Part shown: positions 40,650 to 48,477 of the stretch, in pieces
Layout of the letters: each line of letters opens with the position of its first letter
Position numbering within the stretch: the first letter of the stretch is position 1
DNA from: Acidobacteriota bacterium
GTDB taxonomy: Bacteria; Acidobacteriota; Terriglobia; Acidiferrales; UBA7541
Length of the DNA stretch: 64,000 bases
NCBI GenBank assembly: GCA_013287135.1
Contig: JABDEK010000005.1
Span: 1-64,000, forward strand
Direction: 5' to 3'
Notes under the pieces: model-generated
Database searches by the model: none
What the model was told of the DNA's origin: nothing
Seen by the model: the letters and a program-made list of their open reading frames with translations, nothing else
Translations under genes and position numbers: made by a program

Positions 40650-41603
40650 ATGCGTATCGCAAGCCGCCGAAAGACCATCGCATTTTTCCTGGTGCTGGGA
40701 ATATCCCTGGTGGCCCTGGCCATCGCCCTCGACGTCGGCTGGATCATCCTCAACTGGCGCCAAAGCGTCATGCTATTCCTGGGTGTAATCGTTTTCGCCA
40801 CCATTATCCTGGGCATGATCCTGAACACCACCTTCCTGGTGCGCGAAATCCGCTTGAATGAGCAGCACGGCAGTTTTATTAACGCGGTTACTCACGAGCT
40901 GAAGACGCCGATTACCTCTATCCGTCTCTACCTCGAAACCCTTCAGCGGCGCGAGGTGGAAGAAGAGCAGAGACAAAAGTTTTACGAGCTAATGCTGAAC
41001 GACACTGACCGCTTGTTGGGAACCGTCGAGCAGGTTCTGAAAGCCGGCCAAGTGGGATACAAGCGCGGTGAACCATATCGCGCGCATATTGACCTGGGCA
41101 GCCTCGCCGCCGAGTGCATGGACCTCGCGCGCAGGCGTCACCATCTGAGCGACGAAGCTCTTCATTTTGCGTCCGCAAATGGCCAACCGCCAGCCGCTGG
41201 CAACGCAGCCGGCCCACCCGACTCAAAGCCTATTGCCGAATTTCCGGTGCTAGGCGACCCTGAAGAACTTCGCACGGCCATATCAAACGTCCTTGATAAT
41301 GCCATCAAGTACTCCATGGGAAGCGTTGACGTGGCGGTGAGCATCGAAGCACCCGACCAAGCGCGCGTAGTTCTCCGCGTGCGCGATCGCGGCGTCGGAA
41401 TTCCAACCGACCAGCTCAAACGCGTGTTCAAGCGCTTCCACCGCGTACGGCGCCGGAGCACTTCCAAAGTAAAAGGTACCGGCCTCGGCCTCTTTATCGT
41501 TCGCTCCATTGCGCGCGCACACGGCGGCAAGGTTTATGCCGAAAGCGAAGGCGAAAATCAGGGCACTACCGTGACTTTGGAATTACCGCGGAGCGCTGCA
41601 TGA
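40650..41603 (+). CDS. Intramembrane-sensing sensor histidine kinase
   Basis: A 317-aa kinase with two membrane helices (about residues 9-34 and 40-62) joined by only a few residues, so it has no real extracytoplasmic sensor. The cytoplasmic part has the H-box FINAVTHELKTPITSI, N-box NVLDNAIKYS, G1 DRGVGIP and G2 KGTGLGLFIV. Kinases of this plan sense envelope or bilayer state. It overlaps its response-regulator gene by 4 bp and follows a desaturase. Confidence 0.93.
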   Translation: MRIASRRKTIAFFLVLGISLVALAIALDVGWIILNWRQSVMLFLGVIVFATIILGMILNTTFLVREIRLNEQHGSFINAVTHELKTPITSIRLYLETLQRREVEEEQRQKFYELMLNDTDRLLGTVEQVLKAGQVGYKRGEPYRAHIDLGSLAAECMDLARRRHHLSDEALHFASANGQPPAAGNAAGPPDSKPIAEFPVLGDPEELRTAISNVLDNAIKYSMGSVDVAVSIEAPDQARVVLRVRDRGVGIPTDQLKRVFKRFHRVRRRSTSKVKGTGLGLFIVRSIARAHGGKVYAESEGENQGTTVTLELPRSAA

Positions 41604-42355
41604 GTCGCGTGCTCGTTGTGGAGGACGAAACGCACCTGGCCGACGGCTTGAAATTCAACCTCGAAGCCGAAGGATATTCCGTGCAGGTAGTAGGCGACGG
41701 CGAGTCTGCCATTGACCAGCTTCTAAAGACCAACGAAAAGTTCGATGCCGTCGTGCTCGACGTAATGCTTCCCGGTATAGATGGCTTCGGCGTCGCATGC
41801 GCTCTGCGCAAAGCCAAAAATTACGTTCCCGTGCTGATGCTCACCGCGCGCGGACGTCCGGAAGATGTTCTCGAAGGGTTTGCCGCTGGAGCCGACGATT
41901 ACCTTCCCAAGCCGTTTCAGCTGCCCATATTCTTGGCGCGTCTTCAGGGGCTTTTGCGGCGTTCGGGATGGCTAAGCGGCGCAAATAAGGAATCTGAGAA
42001 AAAATCTTCGGGCCAAAAAGTCGTGGCGAAAAGCGAATCTCCCGCTAGCGAGCAGATGTTGTTTACCTTCAACGGTAGAACGCTCGACTTCGACACTTTG
42101 CAGCTTCGCACAAAAACCAGCACTATACAGCTCACTTTGATGGAAGCGAAACTTCTCCGTCATTTAATAAAACAGAATGGCCGCACGGTATCCCGCAAAT
42201 CGATTCTAGAAGATGTGTGGGACTTGCGAGAAGACACCGACACGCGTGCAATCGATAATTTTATCGTGCGCCTTCGACGTTATATCGAAGACAATCCGGC
42301 CAAGCCACGCCACCTGTTGACCGTGCGAGGCGTCGGATATCGTTTCGTGGCCTAA
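41600..42355 (+). CDS. OmpR/PhoB-family response regulator
   Basis: Receiver domain (phospho-acceptor Asp54 in VLDVMLPG, Lys104 in LPKPF) joined by a Lys/Ser-rich linker of about 30 residues to a winged-helix DNA-binding domain (LTLMEAKLLRHLIKQNGRTVSRKSIL ... DNFIVRLRRYIEDNPAKPRHLLTVRGVGYRF). It is the partner of the kinase encoded just upstream. DNA targets of this class are usually 11-bp-phased direct repeats, as seen before the desaturase gene. Confidence 0.95.
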   Translation: MSRVLVVEDETHLADGLKFNLEAEGYSVQVVGDGESAIDQLLKTNEKFDAVVLDVMLPGIDGFGVACALRKAKNYVPVLMLTARGRPEDVLEGFAAGADDYLPKPFQLPIFLARLQGLLRRSGWLSGANKESEKKSSGQKVVAKSESPASEQMLFTFNGRTLDFDTLQLRTKTSTIQLTLMEAKLLRHLIKQNGRTVSRKSILEDVWDLREDTDTRAIDNFIVRLRRYIEDNPAKPRHLLTVRGVGYRFVA

Positions 42356-42781: not shown

Positions 42782-42815
42782 GGAGCGGCCATTTTGGATG
42801 GCCCTCCGTTTTATT
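42782..42815 (+). terminator. Terminator-like stem-loop before the RsbW-like gene
   Basis: GGAG-c-GGCCAT (42782-42792) pairs with ATGGCC-CTCC (42798-42807), with one bulge and a TTTGG loop, followed by GTTTTATT. It can end the upstream transcript or attenuate the gene that starts 40 bp later. Confidence 0.55.
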
Positions 42816-42854
42816 GTCAGCTTCGCCCAGCTTTCGCTACGAGGGATTAGGGAA

Positions 42855-43313
42855 ATGGATTTGTACAAAGGATGGAAAGTGGGGCCTCCATATCCTCAGT
42901 TCGAACTCTCCATGCCTAGCGAAATATCCGTCATTTCACCTTTTGTGGACGACTTCATGGAGCGCATGAAGGAATACACCCGTTTTAACGGCGATGCGAG
43001 CGATATCGAAGTTGCCCTGCGCGAAGCCATCGCAAACGCAGTTCTTCACGGCAACCGGGAAGATCCCCATAAGCGAGTCCACCTGAGCTTTCGATGCGAA
43101 CCTACCGGCGAACTTTTTTTCGTCGTGCGAGATGAAGGACCCGGCTTCGATCCCGAAAAGGTTCCCGATCCGTTAGCCCCTGAAAATCTCGATGCCGAAC
43201 ACGGTCGCGGAATTTTGATGATGAAGTCCTACATGGACCACGTGCATTACGATCGCGGCGGAACAGAAGTACACATGCACAAAAAACCACCCTCAGCGAA
43301 ACCGGCCAGGTAG
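42855..43313 (+). CDS. RsbW-like ATP-binding protein (anti-sigma/serine-kinase fold)
   Basis: A GHKL-type HATPase protein of 152 aa like RsbW/SpoIIAB. N-box EVALREAIANAVLHGN, G1 VRDEGPGFDP and G2 GRGILMMKSYMDHV are all present. Such proteins bind sigma factors or phosphorylate anti-anti-sigma proteins. No STAS partner is adjacent. The chosen ATG follows AGGGA; an ATG at 42798 would begin inside the terminator-like hairpin and is disfavoured. Its end overlaps the convergent CPBP gene by 21 bp. Confidence 0.85.
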   Translation: MDLYKGWKVGPPYPQFELSMPSEISVISPFVDDFMERMKEYTRFNGDASDIEVALREAIANAVLHGNREDPHKRVHLSFRCEPTGELFFVVRDEGPGFDPEKVPDPLAPENLDAEHGRGILMMKSYMDHVHYDRGGTEVHMHKKPPSAKPAR

Positions 43314-44291
43314 TCCGAGCGCCTCAGGGTCTGGATAGCGCACTTCTCGATATTTCCGAAGAATCAACAGAGACACAACGACGAGGCAAATTAGTGTGAA
43401 GATGCTGGCCTCCGGGCCGGTACTTCCACCCGTCAGCCATTTCGGGCCGTGAAGCTCGGAGTGCAGGAAATTGCGGCTGGCGTTGAGTCCGCTGTCGGGC
43501 ACGCCGTAGAAAAACGTCTGTCCCCAATCCCACGCGGCATGAAATCCGATTGGCCACCACAAATTCCCGGTGCGCTGCACTGCGATGCACGCAAAGATGC
43601 CGAAGGCTGCAACCTGTATCAAACCAAAAATCGATTCACCCGCGTTGCCAGTGTGAGCCGCTGCGAACAGCGCGGACAATACAACGGCGGCCGGCCAGAA
43701 TCCGATACCAGTAGTGAGGGTAAATTGCATGTAGCCGCGAAACATAAATTCTTCTGAGAATCCTACTGCCAGGAAGGCCAGCGTCCATTCCCCAGTTGAA
43801 AGAGCCAACGCTGAGCCATGCGTGTCGACTCCGGTGATTCGGAATCCGTGGAACAGGAAAATCACAAAAAGCACGCCGCTAATCGATAAAAATCCCCATA
43901 ACAATCCTTCCCAAAAATATTTCGGAAAGGGCGTTCGCAAAGGCAGTCCGTAATGTGCAAGCTTTCGGTGCTCGATGCGACCCATGATTAAGGTAGCGAC
44001 AAGAATCACTGCGAGGCTCGTAAGTTCACCTATTGCGATCAGTCCCGGCGTAAGGGTGGTTAGTTGGCTGGGATTGACCGGGGCGTGTCCAAATTTGCGA
44101 GCCAAATAGTGGCCGATGACGTTGATAAGGAAAACAATGGCGACCACCATGGCCAGAAAAATTAGGGCCCGCCAACCAGCTCGCAGACCATCGGGCCCGT
44201 AGAATATGGTGTTGCGCGCAGGCTCAGCGGGAGGAGGCGATGTGGACGATTGTGTTATATCTGCCGCTGGAGGTAAGTTTGACTGGTCCAT
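43293..44291 (-). CDS. CPBP family intramembrane protease (second copy)
   Basis: A 332-aa CPBP/Abi-type membrane protease with motif 1 EEFMFRGY, motif 2 FAAAH and motif 3 HAAWD. N-terminal YGPDGLRAGWR and the end motif LHGPKWLTGGSTGPEAS closely parallel the paralogue at 15265-16224. Eight or so hydrophobic helices are visible. It may process prenylated or peptide substrates in the membrane; none is known. It is divergent from the ECF sigma gene. Confidence 0.9.
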   Translation of the reverse strand: MDQSNLPPAADITQSSTSPPPAEPARNTIFYGPDGLRAGWRALIFLAMVVAIVFLINVIGHYLARKFGHAPVNPSQLTTLTPGLIAIGELTSLAVILVATLIMGRIEHRKLAHYGLPLRTPFPKYFWEGLLWGFLSISGVLFVIFLFHGFRITGVDTHGSALALSTGEWTLAFLAVGFSEEFMFRGYMQFTLTTGIGFWPAAVVLSALFAAAHTGNAGESIFGLIQVAAFGIFACIAVQRTGNLWWPIGFHAAWDWGQTFFYGVPDSGLNASRNFLHSELHGPKWLTGGSTGPEASIFTLICLVVVSLLILRKYREVRYPDPEALGLPGRFR

Positions 44292-44430
44292 TCGAGAGGG
44301 CCTCTTTTTTAGTGACGGGCAGTCGCGCTAATCGCCGCCATTGGTGATACGGCTGCGAAGTATAGAAAGTTCCAGCCCAAAGCGCAAAGATTGTCGTCAC
44401 ATCACATGGTGAAAACCGATATTTCAGCGT

Positions 44431-44452
44431 AACCTTTCCGCTCCCCGGCCGT
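44431..44452 (+). promoter_or_regulatory. Candidate ECF-sigma promoter (AAC-N16-CGT)
   Basis: GTAACC with AAC at 44431-44433, then 16 bases, then CGT at 44450-44452, matches the usual ECF promoter layout. It lies 34 bp before the sigma gene start, so the sigma factor may drive its own operon. Single-site evidence only. Confidence 0.5.
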
Positions 44453-44486
44453 TTATGTTATTGGAAGACGAAAATCGGAGACGCGG

Positions 44487-45077
44487 TTGAAGGCACCTGC
44501 ACAAGATGCCGGCGAGCGGCGTCTGGTCGAAGCAGCTCAAAAAGACCCGACCCGTTTTGCGGAGCTTTACGAAAACAACTTTGCACGGGTGTACGCGTAC
44601 GTTTCGCGTCGCGTGAACAATCGCGAAGAAGCGCAGGACCTAACGGCTGAAGTGTTCCATCAGGCGCTGGCGAATCTCGGGCGTTTCGAATGGCGGGGAG
44701 TTCCTTTCGCAGCATGGCTGATCCGTATTGCAGCGAACGCGATTGCGGACCGCTGGAAGCTGGCCGCGCGGGAACACGGCCACGCCCTGCCGGGCGAGCT
44801 TTCCTCCAAGGAAATTAGTCCCGAAGAGATCGAACATCGCGCCCGGCTGTTCCGGTTAGTGGACACGCTTCCCGCCGAGCAACGCCGGGTAATCGAAATG
44901 CGTTTCGCGCAGGAAAAAAGCATTAGCGAAATCGCTAAAGGCATTGGACGTACAGAAGGCGCGGTAAAACAGTTGCAGTTTCGCGGCCTGGAAAGTTTGC
45001 GGTCCCAGTTGGATGTTTCATCGCGCAAAGGCACCGCCAGTAAATCGGCCGGCAAAACAGGTAGATTGAATGGCTAA
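44487..45077 (+). CDS. ECF-type RNA polymerase sigma factor
   Basis: A 196-aa sigma-70 family ECF factor. Region 2 spans about residues 25-95 (FARVYAYVSRRVNNREEAQDLTAEVFHQAL) and region 4 about 125-175 (LPAEQRRVIEMRFAQEKSISEIAKGIGRTEGAVKQLQFRGLESLR). The start is TTG 44487, with GGAG six bases upstream. Its last 8 bp overlap the start of a gene whose N-terminus looks like an anti-sigma leader, so that product is its likely regulator. A possible self-recognised promoter lies upstream. Confidence 0.92.
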   Translation: MKAPAQDAGERRLVEAAQKDPTRFAELYENNFARVYAYVSRRVNNREEAQDLTAEVFHQALANLGRFEWRGVPFAAWLIRIAANAIADRWKLAAREHGHALPGELSSKEISPEEIEHRARLFRLVDTLPAEQRRVIEMRFAQEKSISEIAKGIGRTEGAVKQLQFRGLESLRSQLDVSSRKGTASKSAGKTGRLNG

Positions 45078-46563
45078 GCAAAACTTGAGCGAACAACTCG
45101 ACCTGCTCGTGGAAGCGCTCATCACGCGCCAGGAAACCGCGCCAGGGAAGCGCCAACCGAAGGCGAATCCGCAATTGCAGGTGCTTGCGCGAATTGCTGC
45201 GGAACTGCTCGATCTACCGCGCCAGGATTTTAAGGATCGTCTGAAATCGAACCTGGAAAGGAGAACACCGATGGGAAGCAAACCAGTTATGAAAGCGGAA
45301 ACCCGCCAGACAGCGACTGCTTATCTGACGGTAAGAGACGCGGCCGCTGCAATCGAGTTTTACAAAAAGGCCTTCAGCGCCACCGAAGTGATGCGGCTCG
45401 TCGGACCTGGAGCAAAGATCGGCCACGCCGAAATTCGTATCGGCAATTCCAAGATCTACCTTTCCGATGAGTTCCCGGATTTTGGATCGGTCGCGCCGCA
45501 AAGGCCAGGCGGCTCTCCGGTGAAAATGGACATCGTAGTGGATGATGTTGACGCCGTTGCAGCGCGCGCCATCGCAGCAGGCGCCAAGGAAGTCCGCGCC
45601 ATCCAGGATCAGTTCTACGGCATGCGCACGGGCCAGGTCGCGGACCCCTTCGGCTACGTCTGGAATATTTCCACGGTACTGGAAGAATTGACCGGCGAGG
45701 AAATGCAAGAACGCTACGACGATTTAGTAAGGCAAGGTGCATTCACGCAGCCTCAACAAAAGCCCGACGAAAAGCGCGGCCCGCGAGCAGTAAGGCCAAT
45801 TCCTGAAGGCTTCCACACGTTAACGCCATATCTCGCCGTAAATGGCGCAGCCAGACTGATCGACTTCCTGAAGGAAGGCTTTGGCGCCGTAGAAAAATTC
45901 CGTGTGAACAGACCGGGCTCGGAATTGGTCATGCACGCCGAGATGCGCATCGGCGATTCCGTGCTGGAAGTGGCCGACGCCAGCGACGAATTCGGCGCGC
46001 GGCTGCTAGGAAACATTCTCCATGTCGATCAGGTGAGCGCGGCGTACCAGCGCGCGTTGAAGGCAGGCGCGACTTCCCGCTTTGCGCCAATCGAGCAGTC
46101 TTATGGAGACCTGGAAGCCGCCGTGAAAGACCCAGCTGGAAATTACTGGAACATCACCGAGATCCGCAAAACCGACCACAGAACTGAGGACACGCGAACG
46201 ATCCTGCCTTACTTGAATCTTGCCGGCGCGGCTGAGTTTGTAGAGTTCGCCAAGCGCGCATTTGGCGCCGAGGAAGTATCCATGTTCAAGGCGCCCGATG
46301 GCAAAGTTGTCCACGCGCGTCTTCGCATCGGTGACTCGATTCTCGCTCTCGGCGAAGCGTACGGCGAGCGCGCGGTAATCCTCGGAGCTTTGCACATGTA
46401 CGTGCCCAACGTGGACGACGTGTACGCAACAGCTGTGCGCGAAGGTATCAAAGTGTTGCGCCCGCTTCGCGACGAGCCTTACGGCGACCGGGCTGCAGTC
46501 TTGCAAGACGCCTTCGGCAACTGGTGGTTCCCGTCCACGCACGTCAAGGACGTGCAATTCTAG
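45070..46563 (+). CDS. Anti-sigma-like N-terminus fused to three VOC (PhnB-like) domains
   Basis: A 497-aa cytoplasmic protein. Residues about 1-65 form a helical leader (EQLDLLVEALITR ... LDLPRQDFKDRLKSNLERR) of the kind found at the start of anti-sigma factors. Three tandem VOC/PhnB-like domains follow (about 78-225, 245-370 and 380-495), each with paired beta-alpha-beta-beta-beta modules and GHAEIRIG/MHAEMRIG/VHARLRIG strands. The gene overlaps the ECF sigma gene by 8 bp. I infer that the VOC part senses a small molecule and controls the sigma factor. A strong internal ribosome site (AAAGGAG, ATG 45271) could yield a VOC-only form. Confidence 0.85.
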   Translation: MAKQNLSEQLDLLVEALITRQETAPGKRQPKANPQLQVLARIAAELLDLPRQDFKDRLKSNLERRTPMGSKPVMKAETRQTATAYLTVRDAAAAIEFYKKAFSATEVMRLVGPGAKIGHAEIRIGNSKIYLSDEFPDFGSVAPQRPGGSPVKMDIVVDDVDAVAARAIAAGAKEVRAIQDQFYGMRTGQVADPFGYVWNISTVLEELTGEEMQERYDDLVRQGAFTQPQQKPDEKRGPRAVRPIPEGFHTLTPYLAVNGAARLIDFLKEGFGAVEKFRVNRPGSELVMHAEMRIGDSVLEVADASDEFGARLLGNILHVDQVSAAYQRALKAGATSRFAPIEQSYGDLEAAVKDPAGNYWNITEIRKTDHRTEDTRTILPYLNLAGAAEFVEFAKRAFGAEEVSMFKAPDGKVVHARLRIGDSILALGEAYGERAVILGALHMYVPNVDDVYATAVREGIKVLRPLRDEPYGDRAAVLQDAFGNWWFPSTHVKDVQF

Positions 46564-46641: not shown

Positions 46642-47382
46642 CTAGCGAAGGTAGGGATTGCTCGCGCGCTCGGCGCCGATCGTCGTATTGGCGCCGTGAC
46701 CGGGCGTGACTAGGGTTGCATCCGGCAAGGTGAGTAATTTCTCGTGAATTGATTTCAGAATGTCTTTGGTCGAGCCGCCCCACAAATCTGTTCGCCCAAT
46801 GCTGCCTTGAAAAAGGGTGTCGCCAGCAAGGAGCCGCGTGCCCTCGCCAGAAGTCACACCTGGTTTCCTAGCCCTAGGATGAACAGGTTCATTCGCGCCA
46901 TGCGCGTGAGAATGGCGCCATGACTCGGCTTCTCCCTGGCCCCCAGGTTCGACTACCAGGCAAATGCTCCCCGGCGTGTGACCCGGCGTATGCAAGACGC
47001 TCGCCGCAAACCCGCCCCAGCGCACCGCGTCCCCTTCCTTCACGAAATCCTGAATCCGCATCATCGCCGGAGTCGCCACGCCTAGCCACTGCGCTTGCAT
47101 GTCGAGATGTGTATAAAGTTCCAAATCACCTTCGTGGATCAGCACAGGCGCTTTGGTCGCAGCGTGCAGTTGCGCCAGCCCGCCCACATGATCGATATGT
47201 GTATGCGTGCTGACAATCGCACGAACCTTCAAATCATGCCGCCGCAAAATTTCCAGGATGCGCTCTACTTCATCGCCCGGATCCACCACAATCGCTTCGT
47301 GCGTACCAGGATCGCCCAGTATAGAGCAGTTGCATTGCAGCATCCCCACCGGAATGATTTCGTGGATCAGTTTTTCCGCCAT
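46642..47382 (-). CDS. MBL-fold hydrolase, glyoxalase II-like
   Basis: Metallo-beta-lactamase-fold hydrolase of 246 aa. Metal motifs THTHIDHVGG (HxHxDH), LHTPGHTPGS, LLAGDTLF and TPGHG are all in order, as in glyoxalase II/YcbL-type enzymes. A His/Gly/Glu-rich insertion (about residues 145-180) is unusual and looks like a flexible loop. ATG 47382 is preferred; the frame extends to 47484 across the divergent gene. It may act on glutathione-like or other thioesters. Confidence 0.87.
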   Translation of the reverse strand: MAEKLIHEIIPVGMLQCNCSILGDPGTHEAIVVDPGDEVERILEILRRHDLKVRAIVSTHTHIDHVGGLAQLHAATKAPVLIHEGDLELYTHLDMQAQWLGVATPAMMRIQDFVKEGDAVRWGGFAASVLHTPGHTPGSICLVVEPGGQGEAESWRHSHAHGANEPVHPRARKPGVTSGEGTRLLAGDTLFQGSIGRTDLWGGSTKDILKSIHEKLLTLPDATLVTPGHGANTTIGAERASNPYLR

Positions 47383-47424
47383 CGCAGCTCTAGTATACTT
47401 GTTGTGCCCGCCGGACTCGAAACC

Positions 47425-48477
47425 ATGGACACTCCCCTTCTCAAGGAACATCGCGCCGTGAACGCGCAACTCGCCGAGTATCACGGCTGTCTGCTGCCGG
47501 AAAAGTTTTCAGATCTAAACACCGAATATCGCGCGGCCAAGCAAACCGCCGCTCTATTCGACACGAACTGGCACGCCATTTTTTCGCTCGCAGGCCCCGA
47601 CCGCGTCCGCTATCTGAACGCAATCGTTAGCAACGACATAAAATCCGTCGGCGAAGCCTACGGCGCCCGCGCTCTGCTGCTCAACCCACAAGGGCACATT
47701 CTCGCCGAACTCGAAGTGTATGCGCTCGAACAGAAATTGCTGGTGCGGGCCCACGCGTCCGTACGCGAACGCACCTTCGCCACGCTCGATAAATACATCA
47801 TTATGGATGACGTCACGCTCGAAGACCTCACCGACCAACTCGGCAGCTTTGCCGTGGAAGGCCCGCAAGCCGGCACCATTATCGCGCAAGCGTGCGGACT
47901 CGCTCTTGAAGGCTTTTCAGAATTTGCGAACGCAGAACTTCCGATCGACGGCGTTCCGTCTCACTTAATTCGTCGCTCTCACTTCGGCGGCCACGGCGCA
48001 GAAATAATCGCTCCCCGCGAACATCTCGGCTTGCTTTGGCAAAGCATGCATGCCCGAGTTCATGCCGCTCATGGCACCTCCATCGGGATGACGACGCTGA
48101 ACGCGCTGCGTCTCGAGGCTGGCATTCCATGGTTCCCCGACGATTTCAACGACTCTGTAATCCCGCACGAAGCCACGTTGGAAGCAACGCACGTAAGTTT
48201 TACGAAAGGCTGCTACACCGGCCAGGAAATCGTGGAGCGCGTCCGCTCGCGCGGTCACGTAAATCGCCGCCGCGTGCTACTCACCTTCTCCGGCCAGGCC
48301 GCCCCCGTGTCCGGAACAAAACTCTGCGCTAGCGGCGCCGAAGTAGGTTACGTCAGTAGCGCAGCCTTCTCTCCCGCCTCCGGCAAAGCCATCGGCATGG
48401 GTTACGTTCGCCGCGAACATAACTCCCCCGCTAGTGTCCTGGAATTTGAAGGGGGAACAGCGACAGTGGCGAGTTAG
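47425..48477 (+). CDS. ygfZ: Folate-binding YgfZ/GcvT-like protein
   Basis: A 350-aa tRNA-modifying GTase/YgfZ-type protein, a tetrahydrofolate-dependent factor for Fe-S cluster assembly or repair. The hallmark KGCYTGQEIVERVRSRG is present near residue 255, with GcvT-like LFDTNWHAIFSLAGPDRVRYLNAIVSNDI at the N-terminal side. ATG 47425 is 42 bp from the divergent MBL gene; the ribosome site is weak. The frame is open to 47095 but that part lies antisense to the MBL gene and is not coding. Confidence 0.87.
   Translation: MDTPLLKEHRAVNAQLAEYHGCLLPEKFSDLNTEYRAAKQTAALFDTNWHAIFSLAGPDRVRYLNAIVSNDIKSVGEAYGARALLLNPQGHILAELEVYALEQKLLVRAHASVRERTFATLDKYIIMDDVTLEDLTDQLGSFAVEGPQAGTIIAQACGLALEGFSEFANAELPIDGVPSHLIRRSHFGGHGAEIIAPREHLGLLWQSMHARVHAAHGTSIGMTTLNALRLEAGIPWFPDDFNDSVIPHEATLEATHVSFTKGCYTGQEIVERVRSRGHVNRRRVLLTFSGQAAPVSGTKLCASGAEVGYVSSAAFSPASGKAIGMGYVRREHNSPASVLEFEGGTATVAS

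What the first reader, a model, noticed from the sequence alone, without database searches (positions are those of the whole stretch)
44431..46563. ECF sigma factor coupled to an anti-sigma-like protein carrying three VOC domains
The sequence shows an ECF sigma gene overlapping by 8 bp a gene for an anti-sigma-like helical leader fused to three VOC/PhnB-like modules, with an AAC-N16-CGT promoter candidate in front. Anti-sigma factors are usually membrane or zinc-binding proteins; a soluble, ligand-binding VOC sensor on the leader would be an unusual way to gate a sigma factor. The regulator-target relation is inferred from overlap and layout, not shown.
Basis: partly seen in the sequence, partly recalled or inferred. 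Interest (0 to 1): 0.75.

Follow-up and report, generated by a model that had tools for sequence, protein, structure and literature searches.

The report
Likely VOC-sensor anti-sigma factor pair
In a little-studied group of soil bacteria, a gene switch (an ECF sigma factor) overlaps a soluble protein that joins a likely sigma-inhibiting segment, related to one known in Streptomyces, to a row of VOC domains of a kind that often binds small molecules, suggesting a switch opened by a chemical inside the cell.

Summary
Window 44487-45077 encodes an ECF sigma factor that overlaps by 8 bp a 497-aa gene (45070-46563): a 68-residue three-helix leader, then three VOC modules. A promoter, CGTAAC-N16-CGTTTA, lies at 44428-44455.

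The pairing is conserved: of 41 distinct leader-VOC genes in Acidobacteriota (window included), 38 have a sigma gene directly upstream and 32 keep exactly the 8-bp overlap. The promoter motif precedes 32 of 39 sigma genes examined, against 3 of 11,700 shuffles.

The leader can be placed. The sigma factor's nearest solved relative is Streptomyces BldN; the promoter resembles BldN's, CGTAAC-N16-CGTTGA. The leader profile matches N-termini of RsbN/DUF5667-type membrane proteins beside ECF genes. RsbN inhibits BldN. So the leader is most likely a soluble RsbN-class anti-sigma domain, its membrane and outer parts replaced by 2-4 VOC modules.

Not shown: sigma binding, ligand, release. Single-chain AlphaFold gave no confident docking; the solved RsbN chain was not matched. 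I rate it a new variant of a known kind.

The parts
44428..44455 (+). Predicted promoter of the sigma operon, CGTAAC-N16-CGTTTA, probably read by the sigma factor itself
   Evidence: Exact site; motif upstream of 32 of 39 sigma genes vs 3 of 11,700 shuffles; only match to the tight pattern in the own genome; close to the published BldN motif CGTAAC-N16-CGTTGA (PMC2375139 passage)
44487..45077 (+). ECF sigma factor gene, 196 aa, TTG start
   Evidence: Pfam Sigma70_r2 and r4; best NCBIfam TIGR02952 BldN family, 131 bits, below its cut-off of 206; best PDB sequence 6dxo_A = BldN, E 1e-21
45070..45077 (+). 8-bp overlap of sigma stop and leader-VOC start
   Evidence: Exact 8-bp overlap in 32 of 41 distinct loci, window included
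45070..45273 (+). Leader, residues 1-68: three-helix segment of RsbN (class III anti-sigma) type
   Evidence: Alignment of 15 leaders, invariant A43, L49, P50, F54, L58; profile match to N-termini of DUF5667 proteins beside ECF genes and of a Nonomuraea RsbN-type protein; helices 6-18, 34-47, 51-65, pLDDT about 60 alone
45319..45678 (+). VOC module 1 (residues 84-203)
   Evidence: Pfam Glyoxalase; model
45820..46161 (+). VOC module 2 (residues 251-364)
   Evidence: Pfam Glyoxalase; model
46201..46542 (+). VOC module 3 (residues 378-491)
   Evidence: Pfam Glyoxalase; model

Best explanation
The two overlapping genes form a sigma/anti-sigma pair. The leader of the 497-aa protein is a soluble class III (RsbN-type) anti-sigma domain that holds the overlapping BldN-like ECF sigma factor inactive. 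The VOC array behind it is the sensing part: when it binds, or runs short of, a small molecule in the cytoplasm, the leader lets the sigma factor go. The freed sigma factor transcribes its own operon from CGTAAC-N16-CGTTTA, making more sigma and more VOC protein; in some relatives extra genes (VOC, YjbR, methyltransferase, peroxiredoxin-VOC) lie in or next to the same operon. I found no sign of a wider regulon, so the VOC protein may be both sensor and product. Shown by the sequences: gene pair, overlap, conserved promoter motif, conserved leader. Supported statistically: relation of the leader to RsbN-type N-termini. Inferred: sigma binding, autoregulation, ligand gating, direction of the signal.
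For: Pairing: 38 of 41 distinct leader-VOC genes have an adjacent sigma ORF (177 bits or more), 32 of 41 with the 8-bp overlap. In a sample of 297 genomes of the phylum a sigma match at E<=1e-25 occurs in 6 genomes, and those 6 carry the leader; a seventh leader genome, G084, has no such sigma match. Co-loss: in G084 no sigma gene precedes the VOC gene and the front half of the leader is gone; in G314 the sigma gene looks broken (by eye) and the leader is gone; both keep VOC modules. Anti-sigma relation: leader vs four DUF5667-protein N-termini, hhalign score 28.7, E 2.5e-5, in register, against at most 17.6 in 200 column shuffles and 13.7 in 92 decoy windows; 2 of the 23 places where the leader profile scored E 0.01-0.1 in the phylum sample lie in N-termini of DUF5667 proteins found independently; an ECF gene directly precedes the DUF5667 gene in 4 of 8 such loci. 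Leader vs the Nonomuraea RsbN-type protein: score 24.6 vs at most 17.5 in 300 shuffles; that protein carries DUF5667 and follows a BldN-like sigma gene (6dxo_A, E 4e-57). Sigma nearest to BldN by sequence, and a relative's sigma by fold. Promoter like BldN's. No membrane-like segment in the 41 sequences held, highest 19-residue hydropathy 1.48. Tight promoter pattern, fitted to these promoters: 19 of 23 matches in 61 genomes lie at sigma/VOC loci, one of them the decayed G314 locus; the other 4 do not exceed the 7 control matches.
Against: No binding data. AlphaFold of a sigma-leader single chain gave pTM 0.40 and leader pLDDT 55-72: no confident docking. The leader profile did not hit the solved RsbN chain, nor did the Nonomuraea protein. 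The DUF5667 N-termini and the Nonomuraea N-terminus do not match each other directly (score 10.7), and the Nonomuraea match spans only 17 columns. With the plain leader profile an unrelated-looking membrane protein (L124) scored as high (13.3 bits) as the DUF5667 N-termini (13.1-13.4). No Pfam or NCBIfam model covers the leader. Loci are related by descent, so counts are not independent. In G331 the sigma gene is broken but the leader whole. Nothing shows that the VOC modules bind a ligand or change sigma activity.
Confidence: 0.62

Rival explanations
1. The VOC protein is a detoxifying or drug-binding product of the operon, and the leader is an anti-sigma domain giving plain negative feedback: more protein, less sigma activity. 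The VOC modules sense nothing.
For: Fold matches of the VOC modules include the thiocoraline-binding protein TioX and metallothiol transferase FosB as well as glyoxalases; VOC modules remain where sigma and leader are lost or broken; single VOC, YjbR, O-methyltransferase and peroxiredoxin-VOC genes lie next to some loci.
Against: In the two searches made with the leader alone, all 31 genomes with a strong match (E<=0.001) carry it fused to VOC modules; a pure feedback device would not need that.
Confidence: 0.2
2. The leader is not an inhibitor but a positive partner (an adaptor that stabilises or activates the sigma factor), with the VOC array delivering the signal.
For: Pairing, overlap and co-loss fit any obligate partner.
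Against: Relation to N-termini of RsbN/DUF5667-type proteins, of which RsbN is a known inhibitor (PMC8103513 passage).
Confidence: 0.08
3. The two genes are only translationally coupled operon members; the leader is an unrelated helical extension, and the RsbN resemblance is convergence of short amphipathic helices.
For: Short, divergent match; solved RsbN chain not found; no docking in the fold; an unrelated-looking protein scored as high with the plain profile.
Against: Profile-profile score well above shuffles, reversed and decoy windows; the match falls in register in proteins at the same gene position after ECF genes; leader eroded in two of three cases of sigma loss or breakage.
Confidence: 0.1

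Closest known systems
BldN-RsbN of Streptomyces (class III anti-sigma, ASDIII)
   Same: Sigma nearest to BldN among solved structures; promoter CGTAAC-N16-CGTTTA close to BldN's CGTAAC-N16-CGTTGA; three-helix N-terminal leader related to RsbN-type N-termini
   Different: RsbN is membrane-anchored (PMC8103513 passage); this protein has no membrane-like segment, and VOC modules stand where the Nonomuraea RsbN-type protein has a hydrophobic stretch (by eye) and DUF5667
ChrR of Rhodobacter sphaeroides (soluble zinc anti-sigma domain + cupin sensor)
   Same: Soluble anti-sigma domain fused to a presumed sensor fold (PMC8999054, its section 2)
   Different: Class I zinc domain and cupin, versus class III-like leader and VOC array
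ECF125 and ECF127 groups with soluble anti-sigma factors similar to those of ECF121
   Same: Soluble and, as the review says, similar to the anti-sigma factors of ECF121; that ECF121 is the BldN group is my inference
   Different: Group membership could not be tested (the classification paper is not held); the review's main text holds neither 'VOC' nor 'glyoxalase'
ECF41 and ECF42 sigma factors with C-terminal SnoaL-like or TPR extensions
   Same: Soluble regulatory domains tied to an ECF sigma factor (PMC8999054 passages)
   Different: There the domain is fused to the sigma factor; here it is on a separate overlapping gene with its own anti-sigma-like leader

Membership tests
ECF sigma factors, BldN-like | Sigma-70 regions 2 and 4 | tested here: met
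   Pfam r2 and r4 above cut-off
ECF sigma factors, BldN-like | Over the TIGR02952 (BldN family) cut-off | tested here: not met
   131 bits vs cut-off 206; so BldN-like, not a member of that equivalog
ECF sigma factors, BldN-like | BldN-type promoter CGTAAC-N16-CGTTGA | tested here: met
   Window CGTAAC-N16-CGTTTA, one base different; of 30 relatives with N14 spacing, window included, the first -10 base is C in 9, A in 18, G in 3. Use of the site by this sigma factor is not shown
Class III (RsbN) anti-sigma factors | N-terminal domain related to those of DUF5667/RsbN-type proteins beside BldN-like ECF genes | tested here: met
   hhalign vs four DUF5667-protein N-termini and vs a Nonomuraea RsbN-type protein, above shuffles and decoys
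Class III (RsbN) anti-sigma factors | Direct sequence match to the solved RsbN chain | tested here: not met
   Not among matches up to E 10 with the leader profile or the combined profile; the Nonomuraea RsbN-type protein also missed it, so the test is weak
Class III (RsbN) anti-sigma factors | Membrane anchor and DUF5667 domain | tested here: not met
   Highest 19-residue hydropathy 1.48 among 41 sequences; no DUF5667 match in the window protein. RsbN-like in its leader only, so not filed as an RsbN
Class III (RsbN) anti-sigma factors | Binds sigma regions 4 and 2.1/2.2 | tested here: inconclusive
   Single-chain model pTM 0.40, no confident docking
Class I zinc anti-sigma factors | Hx3Cx2C zinc motif | tested here: not met
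   No cysteine in the window protein
VOC (glyoxalase/bleomycin-resistance) superfamily | Paired beta-alpha-beta-beta-beta modules | tested here: met
   Pfam PF00903 in three stretches; model and Foldseek
VOC (glyoxalase/bleomycin-resistance) superfamily | Metal site or bound ligand | not tested
   Ligand positions were not mapped on a structure

The most novel reading that the evidence does not exclude
A one-protein circuit: the same polypeptide is anti-sigma factor, chemical sensor and effector. VOC modules bind a toxic or signalling small molecule; binding frees the BldN-like sigma factor, which makes more of the binder from an essentially single-target promoter until the compound is titrated and sigma is captured again. 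Changing the number and kind of VOC modules (2 to 4 seen) would retune which compound opens the switch.
Probability: 0.35. Interest if true: 0.8.

Novelty: new variant of a known kind. Interest (0 to 1): 0.62.

Why it matters
As of 2020 the class III anti-sigma domain rested on one crystal structure, that of the membrane protein RsbN (PMC7406223 passage). A soluble version fused to VOC modules would show that the domain is portable between membrane and cytoplasmic sensors, and would give ECF sigma factors a route to respond to intracellular small molecules without zinc, a phosphorelay or proteolysis. It makes testable predictions in organisms whose regulation is little known: a short target promoter, a partner gene and a modular sensor. 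The leader is common in its order (25 of 61 genomes).

Tried and rejected
Zinc anti-sigma domain: rejected, no cysteine in the window protein and no model matched the leader (Pfam and NCBIfam; all 15 leaders vs Pfam, only weak scattered matches).

Direct match to the solved RsbN chain: sought with the leader profile and with the Nonomuraea protein; not found.

Wider regulon: in the own genome (79% complete) the loose pattern gave 16 matches against 35 for the reversed control, so no excess; the tight pattern gave one, the window's own site. In the order sample 4 of 23 tight matches lie elsewhere: G316 before a methyltransferase gene (Pfam LCM; no leader match there), two in G348 and one in G314 with no sigma or VOC gene among the ORFs listed after them. 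Not pursued.

Sigma-leader docking by AlphaFold: inconclusive; one long helix ran from the last sigma helix into the leader, probably because the chains were joined. A first alignment that mixed sigma-only and leader-only rows was misaligned and not used.

First promoter pattern: 17 of 39, about 1% of shuffles; replaced by the pattern after looking at the sequences.

First decoy set for hhalign (47 windows) held two windows of the joined chain that contained the leader itself and scored 46.1 and 26.2; repeated without that row, maximum 13.7 of 92.

Plasmids: no match to the leader. Leader outside Acidobacteriota: profile searches were possible only in this phylum.

Print: the searches that I ran listed no paper on a VOC-fused anti-sigma factor. 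Their listings were capped (for example 25 of 389, with no listed paper holding 'vicinal oxygen chelate'; no paper holds both DUF5667 and anti-sigma). I saw listings, passages of PMC8999054 (plus its section 2), PMC8103513, PMC7406223 and PMC2375139, and no whole paper. The 2021 ECF classification and the RsbN structure paper are not held.
Full report
WHAT IS THERE. The finding's coordinates are right. An ECF sigma gene (44487-45077, TTG start) overlaps by 8 bp a 497-aa gene (45070-46563). Pfam sees sigma-70 regions 2 and 4 in the first and Glyoxalase (VOC) in three stretches of the second. An AlphaFold model shows leader helices at residues 6-18, 34-47 and 51-65 and VOC modules at 84-203, 251-364 and 378-491; the leader is poorly ordered alone (pLDDT about 60), the VOC modules well ordered. 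The promoter candidate is CGTAAC (44428) - N16 - CGTTTA, ending 44455.

THE PAIRING IS CONSERVED. In a sample of 297 genomes of the phylum, sigma matches at E<=1e-25 occur in 6 genomes and the leader (E<1e-7) in those 6 plus G084. In 61 genomes of the order, 25 carry the leader. Pooled, with duplicates and repeats removed (L150 = L039; L010 = L119), there are 41 distinct leader-VOC genes including the window: 38 with an adjacent sigma ORF, 1 with a broken sigma gene (L167, G331), 1 at a contig edge (L149, where the sigma gene seems to lie on another contig end, L221), 1 without sigma (L119, G084). The overlap is exactly 8 bp in 32 of the 41; six others have gaps of 6-13 bases. The proteins carry 2 (27), 3 (13) or 4 (1) VOC modules by one model's count; L044 has a further, different module that was not counted, and L049 and L160 are cut by the end of the stretch held. 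None of the 41 has a membrane-like segment (highest 19-residue hydropathy 1.48). These loci are related by descent, so the counts describe conservation, not independent events.

CO-LOSS. In G084 no sigma gene precedes the VOC gene, no sigma match was found in the genome at E<=1e-25, and the leader has lost its front half. In G314 the promoter remains, the sigma gene looks broken (read by eye), the leader is gone, and Pfam finds two VOC stretches. In G331 the sigma gene is broken and the leader still whole. So VOC modules can outlive sigma, but in two of these three cases the leader has gone or been cut with it. Three cases are few.

THE PROMOTER. GTRACYTT-N13-15-GTT lies upstream of 32 of 39 sigma genes examined (one duplicate among them), 30 with N14, against 3 of 11,700 Markov shuffles; the pattern was fitted after inspection. 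The consensus is CGTAACCTTT-N11-C[A/C]GTTTAT or a shorter -10, close to BldN's CGTAAC-N16-CGTTGA (PMC2375139, passage); the first -10 base is C in the window and in 9 of the 30, A in 18, G in 3. Of the seven loci without it, two have near misses (L006, L044, read); in two (L160 = G348, L152 = G352) the promoter stands before an extra gene, a VOC protein (Pfam) and a YjbR protein (Pfam), that precedes the sigma gene; in three (L153, L171, L172) none was found. A tight pattern over 61 genomes gave 23 matches; I count 19 at sigma/VOC loci (17 upstream of the leader locus in the same genome, G326 at a contig end with the sigma gene, and the decayed G314 locus) and 4 elsewhere, against 7 control matches. 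In the own genome (79% complete) only the window's site matches. So autoregulation is likely and a wider regulon not evident.

WHAT THE LEADER IS. No Pfam or NCBIfam model covers it. Three results tie it to RsbN-type proteins. First, 2 of the 23 places where the leader profile scored E 0.01-0.1 in the phylum sample (G002, 0.029; G078, 0.062) lie in the N-termini of proteins that a separate search found to carry DUF5667 (Pfam again), each directly after an ECF gene. Only 8 of 297 genomes have any DUF5667 match, 4 over the cut-off. Second, profile-profile comparison of the leader with four such N-termini (three from proteins over the DUF5667 cut-off, L239 below it) gives score 28.7, E 2.5e-5, in register over helices 1-2 and the LP turn, against at most 17.6 in 200 column shuffles, 12.1 reversed and 13.7 in 92 decoy windows. 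Third, a Nonomuraea record holds a BldN-like sigma (6dxo_A, E 4e-57) followed by a DUF5667 protein with a hydrophobic stretch whose N-terminus matches the leader's LP turn and helix 3, score 24.6 against at most 17.5 in 300 shuffles. That rsbN follows bldN in Streptomyces is recalled. Against: the two kinds of N-terminus do not match each other directly, the Nonomuraea match is 17 columns long, an unrelated-looking membrane protein (L124) scored as high as the DUF5667 N-termini with the plain profile, and the solved RsbN chain was not hit.

SIGMA. Its best solved relative is BldN by sequence (E 1e-21, next 4e-11); the sigma of the relative L044 is nearest to BldN by fold. It scores 131 bits with the BldN-family model, below the cut-off of 206, so it is BldN-like rather than a member. 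Of 36 places in the own genome that match that model, it is the best.

MECHANISM. RsbN blocks BldN by covering region 4 and by holding it at the membrane (PMC8103513, passage); its first two helices bind region 4 and the third region 2 (PMC7406223, passage, which swaps the two names). A three-helix leader that is poorly ordered alone fits such a binder. Here the membrane anchor and outer domain are replaced by a soluble VOC array, so the signal is presumably cytoplasmic. Fold matches of the array include glyoxalases, FosB and the thiocoraline-binding protein TioX. Neighbouring genes in relatives (VOC, YjbR, O-methyltransferase, peroxiredoxin-VOC) fit chemical stress, but they vary. In the two searches made with the leader alone, all 31 genomes with a strong match carry it fused to VOC modules. 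The single-chain sigma-leader fold was inconclusive. Ligand and direction of response are unknown.

WHAT IS KNOWN. Soluble anti-sigma factors are known, many of them zinc-binding; ChrR joins one to a cupin (PMC8999054, its section 2). Groups ECF125 and ECF127 are said to have soluble anti-sigma factors similar to those of ECF121 (same section). The window's sigma may belong to one of these, which would make the soluble class III domain already predicted; the classification paper is not held. No paper listed in my searches (capped listings) describes the VOC fusion.

TAXON. One locus of the same genus (G349, L150) has the same leader protein start (150 residues) as L039, titled Candidatus Acidiferrales bacterium, so the window comes from that group of Acidobacteriota.

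On re-reading, some statements were mended (spacer length in the consensus, rows left out, by-eye readings, weak-hit counts, capped listings) and two calls were added (95, 96).

Noticed in passing
window 42798-43313 (+): HATPase_c_2 protein (RsbW/SpoIIAB-like by recollection; Pfam E 2e-26), another possible anti-sigma-type kinase 1.2 kb upstream, after a response-regulator-like ORF at 41600-42355 (by eye).
   Followed up: no
window 43293-44291 (-): Rce1-like CAAX-protease family protein, divergent from the sigma operon.
   Followed up: no
window 46642-47484 (-): Metallo-beta-lactamase-fold hydrolase (glyoxalase II-like by recollection) convergent with the VOC gene.
   Followed up: no
L228 (G316), motif at 1501 of the reverse strand: The operon's promoter motif before a methyltransferase gene (Pfam LCM) in a genome without a leader match: orphan target or chance.
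   Followed up: partly
L040:3346-4287: Peroxiredoxin fused to a VOC domain directly downstream of a leader-VOC gene.
   Followed up: no
L044 and L065, C-terminus of the leader-VOC protein: A further, different module, VOC-like in L065 by one model, conserved at the C-terminus in these two loci.
   Followed up: no
L235, L236, L237, L239: DUF5667 proteins beside ECF genes in Acidobacteriota share an N-terminal LD..LD..L segment with the leader; apart from chance-level matches Pfam shows only DUF5667 (and DUF5666 in L239) in them, not this segment.
   Followed up: partly
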